Origin: Bordetella pseudohinzii
GTDB lineage: Bacteria > Pseudomonadota > Gammaproteobacteria > Burkholderiales > Burkholderiaceae_B
NCBI RefSeq assembly: GCF_000657795.2
Contig: NZ_JHEP02000010.1
Coordinates: forward strand, 124,001 to 188,000
Direction of reading: 5' to 3'
DNA length: 64,000 bases
Within the stretch, counting starts at the first letter, position 1; the number at the start of each line of letters is the position of its first letter. The translations under genes and the position numbers were made by a program. Of this stretch, positions 18,129-21,896 are shown in pieces. The notes under the pieces were generated by a model. The model saw only the letters and a list, made by a program, of their open reading frames with translations, did no database searches and had not been told where the DNA came from.

Positions 18129-18745
18129 GCAATACCCGTACCGTTCCCCCTGGCTACAAGGCAGACGGCCAAGGTCGCCTGACGCCGCTGGATGCGATCA
18201 AACCGATTGACCTCCTGCGTGATGACCTGGTCGTCAAGATCGCCGAGCGGGCGAGGGAGGAATCCCAACGCTTGGCCGAGTTCAAGGGCCATGCCTTCAA
18301 TGACATCGCAGCTTTTGTCGACCTATCGGCCGAGCAGTACGGCGTATCGCTGGGTGGCCGTAAAGGCAATCTGACCTTGTATTCGTTTGATCAGCGCTAC
18401 AAGCTCATCCGTGCCATGGACGAAACGCTGGTGTTCGATGAGCGCCTGCAGGTCGCCAAAGCGCTAATCGACCAGTGCCTGGCCGACTGGACGGCCGACG
18501 CTCGGCCGGAGCTGAAGGCCATCATCGACCGTGCCTTCGAAGTCGACAAGGCCGGCAACATCAACACCGACCGAGTGCTGGCGCTGCGCCGCATCCAATC
18601 CACTGATGAGCGCTGGGCTCAAGCCATGCAGGCCATCAGCGATTCCACCATGCCGGCAGGAAGCAAATCGTACATCCGCGTGTACGAGCGCGTTGGCCTG
18701 ACCGACCGCTACGAGCAGATCCCGCTGGGCGTGGCAAACGTTTAG
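18125..18745 (+). CDS. DUF3164 family phage protein
   Basis: A 206-residue protein matching the DUF3164 family of Mu-like phages. Family-like features are VPPGYKADGQGRLTPLDAIK near the N-terminus, DETLVFDERLQVAKALIDQC in the middle, DRAFEVDKAGNINTDRVLAL, and IRVYERVGLTDRYEQIPL at the end. The function is unknown. It is an early gene, coupled to the previous one by a 4-bp overlap and followed by a 119-bp structured gap before the HU gene. Confidence 0.8.
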   Translation: MSNTRTVPPGYKADGQGRLTPLDAIKPIDLLRDDLVVKIAERAREESQRLAEFKGHAFNDIAAFVDLSAEQYGVSLGGRKGNLTLYSFDQRYKLIRAMDETLVFDERLQVAKALIDQCLADWTADARPELKAIIDRAFEVDKAGNINTDRVLALRRIQSTDERWAQAMQAISDSTMPAGSKSYIRVYERVGLTDRYEQIPLGVANV

Positions 18746-18746
18746 G

Positions 18747-18817
18747 ACCCGGCCTACTGCCAGCCATCGGCAGGCGCACGCGGGCAAACGTGCGCGGTTC
18801 AGGACCCGACGCCGGGT
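18747..18817 (+). other. Structured RNA-like region between DUF3164 and HU genes
   Basis: Three perfect stems can form: ACCCGGC (18747-18753) with GCCGGGT (18811-18817) enclosing CTGCC/GGCAG (18757-18773) and GCGCACG/CGTGCGC (18774-18795). GGACCCG occurs twice (18745 and 18802), so GCCGGGT could alternatively make a local hairpin. The class is unknown; it could control HU expression or processing. There is no U-run, so it is not a standard terminator. Confidence 0.5.
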
Positions 18818-18864
18818 AGGGGGATGGCCCCGGCAACATTCAACTTTTACAGGAAACTGATCAC

Positions 18865-19146
18865 ATGAGTCTCACCAAGAAAGACCTCATCGCCAAGCTA
18901 TCCGACGAGACCGGCTTCTCCCGCAAGGACACCGAAAACATGGTGGACACCCTGGCTGCGACCATCAGCGAGCAGCTGGTCGCGGGCGAGGAGTTCACCC
19001 TGCCGGGCGTCGGCAAGTTCTCGACCTCGCAACGCGAGGCACGCACCGGCCGCAATCCGCAAACGGGCGAATCCATCGAAATTTCCGCCTCCGTGGGCGT
19101 CAAGTTCAGCGCCTCCAAGACCCTGAAGGACCAGGTCAACGCCTGA
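18865..19146 (+). CDS. HU-family DNA-binding protein
   Basis: A 93-residue HU/IHF-family protein that bends DNA. It begins MSLTKKDLIAKLSDETGFSR and contains the beta-arm signature GVGKFSTSQREARTGRNPQTG, with the intercalating Pro in RNPQTG, followed by a short C-terminal helix. It is likely used in transposition or genome packing, as host HU is in Mu transposition. AGGAAAC precedes the ATG. A structured region precedes it and a hammerhead ribozyme follows 10 bp after the stop. Confidence 0.92.
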   Translation: MSLTKKDLIAKLSDETGFSRKDTENMVDTLAATISEQLVAGEEFTLPGVGKFSTSQREARTGRNPQTGESIEISASVGVKFSASKTLKDQVNA

Positions 19147-19156
19147 TTTTCTTTCG

Positions 19157-19213
19157 TGCGAAACCGCCCTCCGGGGCGGTCTGCCGGGCGTGGTGGCCGG
19201 GCACTGATGAGCA
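19157..19213 (+). ncRNA. Type II hammerhead ribozyme 1
   Basis: Full catalytic core in the correct order: stem II strand TGC (19157-19159), GAA (19160-19162), stem III ACCGCCC/GGGCGGT with TCCG loop (19163-19180), cleavage-site C (19181, triplet GUC), stem I TGCC/GGCA closed by a GC-rich loop with a bulge (19182-19203), CUGAUGA (19204-19210), stem II strand GCA (19211-19213). Predicted cleavage is between 19181 and 19182. The stem II of 3 bp is short. Matching partner at 19609-19664. Confidence 0.85.
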
Positions 19214-19241
19214 ACCATGTCAACAACTTTCGAGGCTGAGC

Positions 19242-19607
19242 ATGCGGAAGATCCACGAACATAAGGTCGACAGCTTCAACGAGCTGCTCGACGTCCACGT
19301 CAACGATGAGCGCACTGCTGGCGGTGCGGCGTATCACTACGTCATCGAAGTGCCTGGCGTGCCTGATACCGACATCATTTTTCAGAATGGCGACCCCAAC
19401 CAGGTCGGCCCCACTGGCATCACCATGGAGGTCCTGCTGGCCGTCCTGGCCGACCGCCTGCGTGGGTTCCAGGACGGAGCGTTTCCGTGCCAGGAGAACG
19501 CCGATGCTTTGCGGCATGTGGAAGCTGCCCTGGCGGCCTTGAAGAGCCGGATTCTGCGGCTCAATTCCGGCCAGCAAGCCGCCGATGCGGCATGCCCGAA
19601 TTGTTAG
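19242..19607 (+). CDS. Acb2/Tad1-like cyclic-nucleotide sponge (anti-CBASS/anti-Thoeris candidate)
   Basis: A 121-residue protein. The C-terminal half (about residues 45-105) has the pattern IIFQNGDPNQVGPTGITME, then VLLAVLADRLRGFQDGAFPC and QENADALRHVEAALAALKSR, which resembles the Acb2/Tad1 hairpin domain. Proteins of that group bind the cyclic signals of CBASS or Thoeris and are found in Mu-like phages. The N-terminal part (VNDERTAGGAAYHYVIEVPG) also fits the longer members. The usual C-terminal RGVEGT-like tail is absent. GAGG lies 6 nt before ATG 19242. The gene stands alone between two hammerhead ribozymes. Family assignment is by memory of conserved pattern; ligand is unknown. Confidence 0.7.
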   Translation: MRKIHEHKVDSFNELLDVHVNDERTAGGAAYHYVIEVPGVPDTDIIFQNGDPNQVGPTGITMEVLLAVLADRLRGFQDGAFPCQENADALRHVEAALAALKSRILRLNSGQQAADAACPNC

Positions 19608-19608
19608 A

Positions 19609-19664
19609 AGCGAAACCGCCCATGAGGCGGTCTGCCCACCGTCGTGGCTGGGTACTGATGAGCA
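19609..19664 (+). ncRNA. Type II hammerhead ribozyme 2
   Basis: Same order as ribozyme 1: stem II strand GC (19610-19611), GAA (19612-19614), stem III ACCGCC/GGCGGT with CATGA loop (19615-19631), C at 19632 (GUC), stem I TGCCCA/TGGGTA (19633-19654) with one GU pair, CUGAUGA (19655-19661), GC (19662-19663). Predicted cleavage is between 19632 and 19633. Stem I and the stem III loop differ from ribozyme 1 while keeping pairing, which is compensatory change. Stem II is only 2 bp. Confidence 0.83.
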
Positions 19665-19686
19665 GCGCCAACAATAGGAGATGATC

Positions 19687-20103
19687 GTGTCGAGAACTGA
19701 ACAGGCCCTGGAACTGGTGCGCGCGCGCCCCGGCATCCGTTCCATCGAAATCGAAGATGAGCTTAGCGTCAGTGGCGCCACTGCCATCCTGGCCAGTGCG
19801 GTCCAGAAGGGCATGGTGCGCGCTGAGCGGGTGCAAGCGCCCAGCGGCCGCTGGGTGGCTGCTTTCTATCCCGTAGACCAAGAGCCAGCTGGGGACCGCG
19901 ATATCACCGTGCCGCGCCAGGTTCGCACGGCCGCGCCACGCGCGACGGCCGAAGGCTTGGTGGCCGCTCTATTCACCAATGGCGACTTGGTCCTGGAAGT
20001 TGGCCGCAAATCGATACGGTTGAATGCCGGCCAAACTCGGCACCTAGTGCAGTACCTGGATCGGATCAACGTCGACCAGATCATGGCCGGCGTCGACAAG
20101 TAA
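19687..20103 (+). CDS. Winged-helix hypothetical protein after ribozyme 2
   Basis: A 138-residue protein. Residues 1-60 (EQALELVRARPGIRSIEIED, AILASAVQKGMVRAERVQ, GRWVAAFYPV) form a winged helix of the kind that senses or binds DNA. A linker and a C-terminal domain (GDLVLEVGRKSIRLNAGQTR) of unknown fold follow. GTG 19687 is preferred to ATG 19681: AGGAG ends directly at 19680, leaving no spacer for the ATG but 6 nt for the GTG. Translation would start on the RNA released 3' of ribozyme 2. The function is unknown. Confidence 0.6.
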   Translation: MSRTEQALELVRARPGIRSIEIEDELSVSGATAILASAVQKGMVRAERVQAPSGRWVAAFYPVDQEPAGDRDITVPRQVRTAAPRATAEGLVAALFTNGDLVLEVGRKSIRLNAGQTRHLVQYLDRINVDQIMAGVDK

Positions 20104-20107
20104 GCAC

Positions 20108-20698
20108 ATGGCTGCAACCTCTCCAATCGCCCGGCTGAAGCGGCTTGTCCACGTGGCCAAGCGCGAGCTGGGCATGGACGACGATTCCTACCGCGAAGCC
20201 CTGCACGCGGCCACGGGCAAGCGCTCGACCTCCGGGATGTCCGTGGCCGAGCTGGATGCGGTCATGTTGCATATGAAGCGCTGCGGCTTCAAGGTTCGGC
20301 TGAACCCGAAGCCGAGCCGCCCCTTGGACCTGCAGGCAGAAAGCCGCAAGATTCGCGCGCTTTGGATACTGCTGCGCGACCTGGGTGCCATCCAGAACTC
20401 CTCCGAGGAGGCCCTGGGCGCCTACATCAAGCGCATGACCGGCGTTGATGCCCTGCAGTGGATCAACGGCCAACAGGCCGAACGGGTGATTGAGGGCCTG
20501 AAAAAGTGGGCGCTGCGGTTCCTACCGGCGCGGGTGAGTGCGATGGTGGAAGCCCTCGGGCCGCGCATCAGCAGCTTGGACCCAGTCAACCAAGCTGCGC
20601 TGCGCGTCACGTTGAGCCAAGCATTTGCTCGCCAAACCTTTGACCCGATGTTGAAGGCCTGGACGCTCTTGAGCCAGGTTTCCGCAGCAGGAGAATAG
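20108..20698 (+). CDS. GemA / Mu gp16-like regulatory protein (DUF1018)
   Basis: A 196-residue protein of the GemA (DUF1018) family. The N-terminal ARLKRLVHVAKRELGMDDDS, then YREALHAATGKRSTSGMSV and AELDAVMLHMKRCGF are characteristic. In Mu, GemA affects host gene expression and DNA topology. It is four bases after the previous gene and ends 1 bp before the Mor-like gene; the GemA-Mor order is the same as in Mu. Confidence 0.85.
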   Translation: MAATSPIARLKRLVHVAKRELGMDDDSYREALHAATGKRSTSGMSVAELDAVMLHMKRCGFKVRLNPKPSRPLDLQAESRKIRALWILLRDLGAIQNSSEEALGAYIKRMTGVDALQWINGQQAERVIEGLKKWALRFLPARVSAMVEALGPRISSLDPVNQAALRVTLSQAFARQTFDPMLKAWTLLSQVSAAGE

Positions 20699-21293: not shown

Positions 21294-21896
21294 ATGACCG
21301 AAGCCACCGCCAATCCCGCCCTGCACGCGCTCAATACGCGCCGTTCCATGAAATTCCTGCGCGCGCCCGCGCCCAAGCCCGATGAGCTCGCGCAGATCCT
21401 GCAAGCCGCCATGAGCGCGCCCGATCACGGGGCGCTGCGCCCCTGGCGTTTCGTGCGCATCCAGGGCGAGGCCATCGGCCGCTTCGCCGACGCGGCGCTG
21501 GATGCCGTCAAGCGCAGCGGCGATCCGCGCATGACGCCCGAGAAAGAAAAATCCGTGCGCGCCTGGATGGCCGAGGTGCCGCTGTTCCTGGCCCTGGCGG
21601 CCAAGATCGACCACAACTCCAAAGTGCGCGAGCAGGAGCAGGTGCTGGCCGCCGGCGCGGCCGTGATGAACATCCTCAACGCCACCCATATGCTGGGCTA
21701 CGGCGCTTTCTGGAGCACGGGGCTGGGCACCTATGTCGAAGAGGTCCAGGAGATCCTGGGCCTGGATCCCCTGGAGTACCGCTTCCTGGGCTATCTGGCC
21801 ATCGGCACGCCGGCCTGCGCCGTGCCGCCGGCCAACCGCCCGGATTTCCGCGACTTCCTGACCGAATGGACGGGCGCCGAGGCAGCGGTCAAATAA
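21294..21896 (+). CDS. Nitroreductase family protein (YdjA-like)
   Basis: A 200-residue FMN-dependent oxidoreductase of the small nitroreductase type. N-terminal LNTRRSMKFLRAPAPKPDEL and APDHGALRPWRFVRI carry the FMN-phosphate and ring contacts (Arg-Arg-Ser; SAPDHG). MLGYGAFWSTGL and LGYLAIGTPA further on match YdjA-like enzymes. The physiological substrate is unknown. Its 5' region has a GC hairpin (21248-21274) and it is the first host gene after the prophage. A bidirectional terminator separates it from argH. Confidence 0.85.
   Translation: MTEATANPALHALNTRRSMKFLRAPAPKPDELAQILQAAMSAPDHGALRPWRFVRIQGEAIGRFADAALDAVKRSGDPRMTPEKEKSVRAWMAEVPLFLALAAKIDHNSKVREQEQVLAAGAAVMNILNATHMLGYGAFWSTGLGTYVEEVQEILGLDPLEYRFLGYLAIGTPACAVPPANRPDFRDFLTEWTGAEAAVK

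What the first reader, a model, noticed from the sequence alone, without database searches (positions are those of the whole stretch)
19157..19664. Two type II hammerhead ribozymes in the early operon of the prophage
Both elements have, in circularly permuted type II order, GAA, A-U closing stem III, a GUC cleavage triplet, closed stem I and CUGAUGA, with stem II open to the outside. All invariant core bases are present twice. The copies differ in stem I and in the stem III loop while keeping pairing, which argues for selection on structure. Hammerheads in bacteria and prophages are known as a group; this pair is tightly spaced and embedded in a BcepMu-type operon. The short stem II (3 and 2 bp) is the weak point.
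Basis: partly seen in the sequence, partly recalled or inferred. Interest (0 to 1): 0.95.

Follow-up and report, generated by a model that had tools for sequence, protein, structure and literature searches.

The report
Paired hammerhead ribozymes behind phage HU gene
A prophage carries two RNA elements of a known self-cutting family, one on each side of a small gene and the first right behind a gene for an HU-type DNA-binding protein; many related phages with that gene have such an element, or instead a predicted plain hairpin, at the same spot, so the elements are predicted to cut the messenger RNA there and likely serve to give the HU message a protected end.

Summary
Confirmed. Both elements match Rfam RF02276 (Hammerhead_II) at 68.6 and 58.2 bits (cut-off 37); the genome search found no others. 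The 'weak' stem II (3 and 2 bp) is normal for the class. Clustered hammerheads flanking single prophage genes were published in 2011 (PMC3088659), and enrichment near Mu-like phage genes is in print with its reason 'still unknown' (PMC10085705). So: new member of a known kind.

The new part is position. In loci with a related transposase, 14 of the 18 that carry a ribozyme have it 0-11 nt behind the HU stop codon, as does the named phage KS10; the downstream gene varies. HU gaps without a ribozyme still fold strongly (14 of 14 dereplicated gaps of 45 nt or more; TTTT in 1). One clade shares the stem III hairpin but lacks the rest. I infer that the element mainly makes a hairpin-capped 3' end for the HU message. 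Cleavage and role are untested, and the HU association weakens to median p 0.06 on a tree. The transposase is B3-like, not BcepMu-like.

The parts
18865..19146 (+). HU-family DNA-binding protein gene (93 aa), upstream cistron of copy 1
   Evidence: Pfam Bac_DNA_binding E 2.5e-31; phrog_379 E 4e-30
19156..19220 (+). Hammerhead copy 1, type II; first core base pair G19158 lies 11 nt behind the HU stop codon
   Evidence: RF02276 68.6 bits; minimum-energy fold is the hammerhead
19163..19180 (+). Copy 1 stem III hairpin; would form the 3' end of the HU message
   Evidence: upstream piece alone z -2.34
19181..19182 (+). Predicted cut site of copy 1, after GUC
   Evidence: RF02276 alignment; cleavage not tested
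19182..19203 (+). Copy 1 stem I hairpin; would form the 5' end of the downstream message
19191..19217 (+). Copy 1 pseudoknot: loop 19191-19194 (UGGU) with tail 19214-19217 (ACCA)
   Evidence: alignment A5 row 1; covariation across 84 elements
19204..19213 (+). Copy 1 CUGAUGA core strand and stem II 5' strand (GCA, 3 pairs with 19157-19159)
19242..19607 (+). 121-aa gene of unknown function between the two ribozymes
   Evidence: phrog_2428 E 3.2e-17, unknown function; no Pfam match
19608..19671 (+). Hammerhead copy 2, type II; G19610 lies 2 nt behind the stop codon of the 121-aa gene
   Evidence: RF02276 58.2 bits
19632..19633 (+). Predicted cut site of copy 2, after GUC
   Evidence: RF02276 alignment; cleavage not tested
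19642..19668 (+). Copy 2 pseudoknot, partial: loop 19642-19644 (UCG) with tail 19666-19668 (CGC), two of three pairs
   Evidence: alignment A5 row 2
19681..20103 (+). 140-aa gene of unknown function, downstream cistron of copy 2
   Evidence: phrog_18765 E 5.8e-55

Best explanation
Two RNA elements that match the type II hammerhead ribozyme model lie behind the HU gene and behind the next small gene of a B3-like prophage, and they are predicted to cut the early mRNA so that each upstream message likely ends in a stable hairpin. Cutting after GUC would leave the HU message with its stop codon, a short spacer and the stem III hairpin, ending in a 2',3'-cyclic phosphate. The next message would start with a 5'-hydroxyl, the stem I hairpin and its loop/tail pseudoknot, close before its ribosome-binding site. 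Cutting at both sites would free a 451-nt message for the 121-aa gene. I infer that the main selected role is to form the 3' end of the HU message and to separate it from the rest: HU is the recurrent upstream neighbour, the downstream gene changes, and relatives without a ribozyme have another hairpin at that place. Shown: sequence match, position, covariation, folding of the HU gaps. Inferred: cotranscription, cleavage, end protection, role.
For: RF02276 68.6 and 58.2 bits. Pseudoknot and stem I covariation. Of 18 ribozyme-bearing loci among 160 with a related transposase, 14 have the ribozyme 0-11 nt behind the HU stop; KS10 has it 1 nt behind. HU is the commonest upstream PHROG in an independent set of viral hammerheads, 12 of 103, against 2 of 97 downstream. 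Downstream genes differ. HU gaps without a ribozyme: 14 of 14 dereplicated gaps of at least 45 nt have z below -1.5, against 7 of 39 (phrog_846), 1 of 11 (GemA), 11 of 22 (Mor); TTTT in 1 of 14 against 12 of 22 behind Mor. Stem III shared with ribozyme-free relatives in one clade. The stem III pieces fold well alone (z -2.34, -2.76). PMC3088659 reports cleavage in vitro for 14 of 18 consensus hammerheads tested.
Against: No cleavage data for these two. Copy 2 has a competing minimum-energy fold and a partial pseudoknot. The stem I ends of the downstream pieces are not unusually stable (z 0.01 and 0.86). 24 of the 39 HU-bearing loci in the test have no ribozyme, and 2 of 63 without HU have one. 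On a transposase tree the HU-ribozyme association has median p 0.06. The window's second copy does not follow HU. In one search, without the gap filter, 3 of 16 HU junctions without a ribozyme were not below z -1.5, and HU gaps with a ribozyme gave only 2 of 5. 103 of 117 viral hammerheads abut some upstream stop codon, 91 of them not of HU, so HU is one case of a wider habit. A weak terminator-like site (19132-19145) overlaps the end of the HU gene.
Confidence: 0.5

Rival explanations
1. The ribozymes serve the downstream message: cutting gives it a 5'-hydroxyl end and a hairpin/pseudoknot ahead of its ribosome-binding site, which sets its stability or translation.
For: A start codon follows at 8-38 nt in 97 of 117 viral elements. 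The pseudoknot lies wholly in the downstream piece. PMC3088659 describes a hammerhead 13 nt before a helicase start in haloviruses, with a transcript 5' end mapped within 3 nt of the cut site, and one before ardA in Legionella.
Against: The downstream gene differs between related phages while HU stays upstream. Two contigs (L131, L132) encode relatives (43-44%) of the window's 121-aa gene with no RF02276 match above cut-off.
Confidence: 0.2
2. The elements are neutral or selfish joints: similar ribozyme sequences spread or mark module borders at which phages swap genes, and cutting has no function.
For: The gene content between the DUF3164 gene and GemA varies among relatives with one or two copies. 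PMC3088659 notes that flanked genes are not constant and that ribozymes are common in selfish elements. A related contig (L179) has a decayed copy, 22.6 bits.
Against: Pairs covary in stem I and pseudoknot. The position behind HU recurs in distant phages. I did not test recombination at the elements.
Confidence: 0.15
3. Cutting is gated by ribosomes: the element abuts a stop codon, so a terminating ribosome covers its first strand and only untranslated or ribosome-free message is cut.
For: The gap between stop codon and element is -1 to 1 nt in 53 of 117 viral elements. Copy 2 starts 2 nt behind a stop codon.
Against: Copy 1 lies 11 nt behind its stop codon. Close packing alone is expected in compact phage genomes. 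The ribosome's footprint is recalled, not computed.
Confidence: 0.1
4. The stem III hairpins are intrinsic terminators and the hammerhead likeness is incidental.
For: Stem III is a stable hairpin behind each gene.
Against: No T-run follows either stem III. The scan finds two terminator-like sites in 18700-20200 (shuffles: mean 1.0), neither of them stem III, though one overlaps the HU stop codon. Core and pseudoknot match the ribozyme model.
Confidence: 0.03

Closest known systems
Type II hammerhead ribozymes, Rfam RF02276 (Perreault et al. 2011, PMC3088659)
   Same: Family model match, core, permuted order, stem II of 2-3 pairs, loop I/tail pseudoknot, copies flanking one gene in a prophage
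   Different: Nothing in the RNA itself. The position behind the HU gene and its hairpin replacements were not in the passages I saw
Burkholderia phage KS10, HU gene region (NC_011216.1)
   Same: DUF3164 gene, HU gene, RF02276 hammerhead (72 bits) 1 nt behind the HU stop, later GemA and Mor
   Different: One hammerhead in the 6.3 kb read; its record is not among the 58 that match the window's transposase; another gene follows
Hammerhead pairs in Rheinheimera baltica and R. maricola prophages (L275, L285)
   Same: Related transposase, two RF02276 matches above cut-off close together
   Different: The pair frames HU itself instead of the gene behind it
Enrichment of hammerhead and twister ribozymes near genes of Mu-like phages (as told in PMC10085705, passages)
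   Same: This is a further case; the paper calls the biological reason still unknown
   Different: No HU-side rule in the passages seen

Membership tests
Type II hammerhead ribozyme (RF02276) | Score above Rfam's gathering threshold (37 bits) | tested here: met
   68.6 and 58.2 bits
Type II hammerhead ribozyme (RF02276) | Conserved core: GAAA, A-U closing stem III, GUC, CUGAUGA, in type II order with stem II open | tested here: met
   Read in the sequence and in the model alignments
Type II hammerhead ribozyme (RF02276) | Three stems, stem II of at least about two pairs | tested here: met
   Copy 1 stem II 3 pairs, copy 2 2 pairs; one mismatch in each stem I
Type II hammerhead ribozyme (RF02276) | Loop I/3' tail pseudoknot (common, not universal) | tested here: met
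   4 pairs in copy 1, 2 standard pairs in copy 2; 86.5% of cells paired in 84 elements, four Watson-Crick types at the central pair
Type II hammerhead ribozyme (RF02276) | Self-cleavage at the GUC site | not testable with these tools
   No experiment
B3-like (Beetrevirus) transposable phage | Transposase A similar to that of phage B3 | tested here: met
   B3 46.5%, JBD67 (Beetrevirus) 49.7% over 98% of the query
B3-like (Beetrevirus) transposable phage | Whole-genome placement in the genus | not tested
   No genome-wide comparison made; 'B3-like' here refers to the transposase
   No Burkholderia phage among the 58 matching phage records at E <= 1e-5; presence of BcepMu in the collection not checked. 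KS10's DUF3164 gene is noted as similar to BcepMu gp05, so parts of the region may be shared

The most novel reading that the evidence does not exclude
The 3' end of the HU gene in Mu-like phages is an RNA-hairpin niche that evolution fills with a self-cleaving ribozyme in some lineages and with catalytically dead or unrelated hairpins in others. The job of these phage hammerheads is then to make the 3' end of an upstream message, and some of the plain hairpins may be undescribed ribozymes.
Probability: 0.35. Interest if true: 0.75.

Novelty: new member of a known kind. Interest (0 to 1): 0.45.

Why it matters
Why phages carry hammerhead ribozymes is an open question in print (PMC10085705, passages). 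A recurrent position behind one gene, with plain hairpins in its place in relatives, makes it a direct test: does the HU message need the cut, or only the hairpin? The isolated phage KS10 has the same HU-hammerhead junction.

Tried and rejected
Chance match: rejected (E 3.7e-12 and 1.9e-9; no other match in the genome).

Intrinsic terminator: rejected. BcepMu-type label: rejected for the transposase.

Gene neighbours by a greedy longest-ORF caller: it put 38 of 104 elements inside called ORFs (mostly on the other strand), and of the other 66 found the upstream ORF on the same strand in 49 of 60 and the downstream one in 46 of 60. I judged the caller poor in G+C-rich DNA and used ORFs that end at the element, with a random-position control. 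One search had a bug in its stem I filter; its counts are not used. The expression missed ribozymes with other stem II letters (L176, L237); they were added.

Known RNA families in HU gaps without a ribozyme: none above cut-off in 15 of the 26 such loci, scanned whole; the other 11 were not scanned against all families.

Counts: 58 of 160 loci lack the phrog_846 gene or GemA in the stretch held and are left out of the Fisher test. Matches in the genomes of L233, L236, L250, L266 and L271 are not in the transposase loci held and are not counted; those from the genomes of L233 and L236 (L325, L327) also follow an HU gene.

Hairpin control. One search took 70 nt after each stop codon, coding or not, dereplicated; below z -1.5: HU without ribozyme 13 of 16, HU with ribozyme 4 of 7, phrog_846 3 of 58, GemA 4 of 69, Mor 30 of 74. 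One search took gaps of at least 45 nt to a called start (23 of the 26 HU loci without ribozyme, 14 after dereplication); HU with ribozyme gave 2 of 5.

HU tree: 57 rows (31 with ribozyme, 26 without), 10 changes of state, of which starred branches force only 2; few columns, and no direction of change.

Full report
What is there. The window holds two matches to Rfam's type II hammerhead model, both far above its cut-off, at 19156-19220 and 19608-19671 on the + strand; the family search of the whole genome gives no other. Copy 1 has the hammerhead as its minimum-energy secondary structure. Copy 2 has a competing fold in which CUG of the core pairs with CAG just behind it. Neither element folds much better than shuffled sequence as a whole (z -0.84, -0.90); the stem III pieces do (z -2.34, -2.76), the downstream pieces do not (z 0.01, 0.86).

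In an alignment of 84 elements with the same stem I length (the window pair, viral contigs and genomes) stem I has 93.1% of cells paired, and a three-pair pseudoknot between the stem I loop and the tail behind stem II has 86.5%. Its central pair occurs as GC 67, AU 5, CG 3, GU 1 and UA 1, with 7 unpaired. For stem I and pseudoknot together 0 of 500 shuffles reach the covariation score, and sliding the partners destroys it. Such pseudoknots, stem II of two pairs, and copies flanking single prophage genes are all described in PMC3088659 (passages; first of two parts of the Discussion). Copy 1 has a four-pair version; copy 2 keeps two standard pairs and one possible U-G.

Setting. The genes are those of a transposable phage: transposase A and B, phrog_846 (DUF3164 in named phages), HU, the 121-aa and 140-aa genes of unknown function, GemA and Mor. 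The transposase is 46.5% identical to that of phage B3 and 49.7% to that of JBD67, and none of the 58 matching phage records is a Burkholderia phage. That these genes form one early operon is inferred from order and strand; the promoter scan of 18700-20200 found no site.

Spread. RF02276 is above cut-off in 5 of 268 genomes of the host's family, the window's own included. After stem checks 117 distinct elements in 103 of those loci remain. A same-strand ORF of at least 40 aa ends within -25..+8 nt of the element in 103 of 117, and at 294 of 2300 random positions under the same rule. The gap is -1 to 1 nt in 53 of 117, and a start codon follows at 8-38 nt in 97 of 117. So the element often fills the space between a stop codon and the next start.

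The HU side. Among the 103 upstream ORFs the commonest PHROG is phrog_379, the HU family, with 12 members (phrog_38608, which also matches the window's HU, has 11; each other family shown has at most 5). Among the 97 downstream ORFs phrog_379 has 2. Independently I took 160 loci with a related transposase (the best 80 of 421 viral and of 220 genomic) and searched the records or genomes in which they lie: above cut-off 9 of 40 and 2 of 40 viral records, 8 of 39 and 4 of 40 genomes. In the stretches held, 18 of 160 loci carry a ribozyme: in 14 it starts 0-11 nt behind the HU stop codon, in one (L154) 158 nt behind it, and in three (L162, L177, L232) no HU precedes it. Many are close kin: I count about eight lineages by eye among the 15 with HU. 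Of the 102 loci that hold both the phrog_846 gene and GemA, 15 of 39 with HU and 2 of 63 without HU have a ribozyme (Fisher p 5.4e-6, kinship ignored). On a transposase tree, with 12 independent pairs, the median p is 0.06. The isolated Burkholderia phage KS10 has HU, 1 nt, then a 72-bit hammerhead. In Rheinheimera baltica and R. maricola two hammerheads frame HU itself. The next gene is the 121-aa gene here, GemA in others, and further genes elsewhere. Distant relatives of the 121-aa gene (L131, L132; 43-44%) have no match above cut-off.

Without a ribozyme. In 26 HU-bearing loci without one, 23 have a gap of at least 45 nt behind HU; after dereplication 14 of 14 fold with z below -1.5 (median -3.53), against 7 of 39 behind phrog_846, 1 of 11 behind GemA and 11 of 22 behind Mor. 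TTTT occurs in 1 of 14 HU gaps and 12 of 22 Mor gaps, so most HU hairpins do not look like intrinsic terminators. Without the gap filter the HU figure is 13 of 16. None of the 15 loci scanned whole matches a known RNA family above cut-off. In one clade L186, L198 and L204 have the hammerhead (L186 with changes in GAAA and at N7, L198 at N7), while L169, L172-L175, L178 and L236 have almost the same hairpin arms as its stem III but no CUGANGA and no stem I. On the HU tree the two states are interleaved: 10 changes, of which starred branches force 2.

Mechanism. By the known chemistry of hammerheads (recalled) cutting after C17 leaves a 2',3'-cyclic phosphate on the upstream piece and a 5'-hydroxyl on the downstream piece. 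The upstream piece then ends in stem III and the downstream piece begins with stem I. I read the element as a device that gives the HU message, and at the second site the message of the 121-aa gene, a hairpin-capped 3' end and cuts it off from what follows. HU as the recurrent neighbour and the plain hairpins at the same place favour the upstream side; the link from hairpin to message stability is inference. Nothing in these calls shows that either copy cuts.

Novelty. RNA family, architecture, pseudoknot and prophage clustering are known. PMC10085705 (passages) says hammerhead and twister ribozymes are enriched near genes of Mu-like phages for a reason still unknown; two earlier papers that I took to be its sources, by DOIs recalled, are not held. 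PMC6155905 (passages) also calls the role of prokaryotic hammerheads open. The listings of my searches show no paper on an HU-side ribozyme or its replacement by hairpins; most subscription papers lie outside that library.

Noticed in passing
L004:1501-1562, L007:1501-1562, L332:1501-1562 (minus strand): A different type II hammerhead form in two genomes of the host's family and in Rhodocyclus tenuis (36.4, 37.6, 39.5 bits). In L004 and L332 a similar small ORF (MMAGYVYLCFD...) reads through it, with ATGATG of CUGAUGAUGG as its likely start, so ribozyme core and start codon would overlap.
   Followed up: partly
L240, L241, L300, L256 and L157, L159-L161, L164, L183, L231, just behind HU: Two further groups of HU-side hairpins with conserved flanking letters and variable stems or loops; no Rfam match in the members scanned (L240, L256, L300, L157, L159, L161). 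Candidates for undescribed structured RNAs.
   Followed up: partly
L179 (L319:1501-1569): A hammerhead-like stretch at 22.6 bits, below cut-off, with changes in GAAA, GUC and CUGAUGA: looks like a decayed copy next to the intact ones of L162 and L232.
   Followed up: no
window 21294-21896: An ORF of the nitroreductase family (Pfam PF00881, E 8.3e-26) just behind Mor, perhaps cargo or the edge of the prophage.
   Followed up: no
window 19132-19145: A weak terminator-like hairpin with a T-rich tail overlaps the HU stop codon, just before copy 1 (two sites found, shuffles mean 1.0).
   Followed up: no
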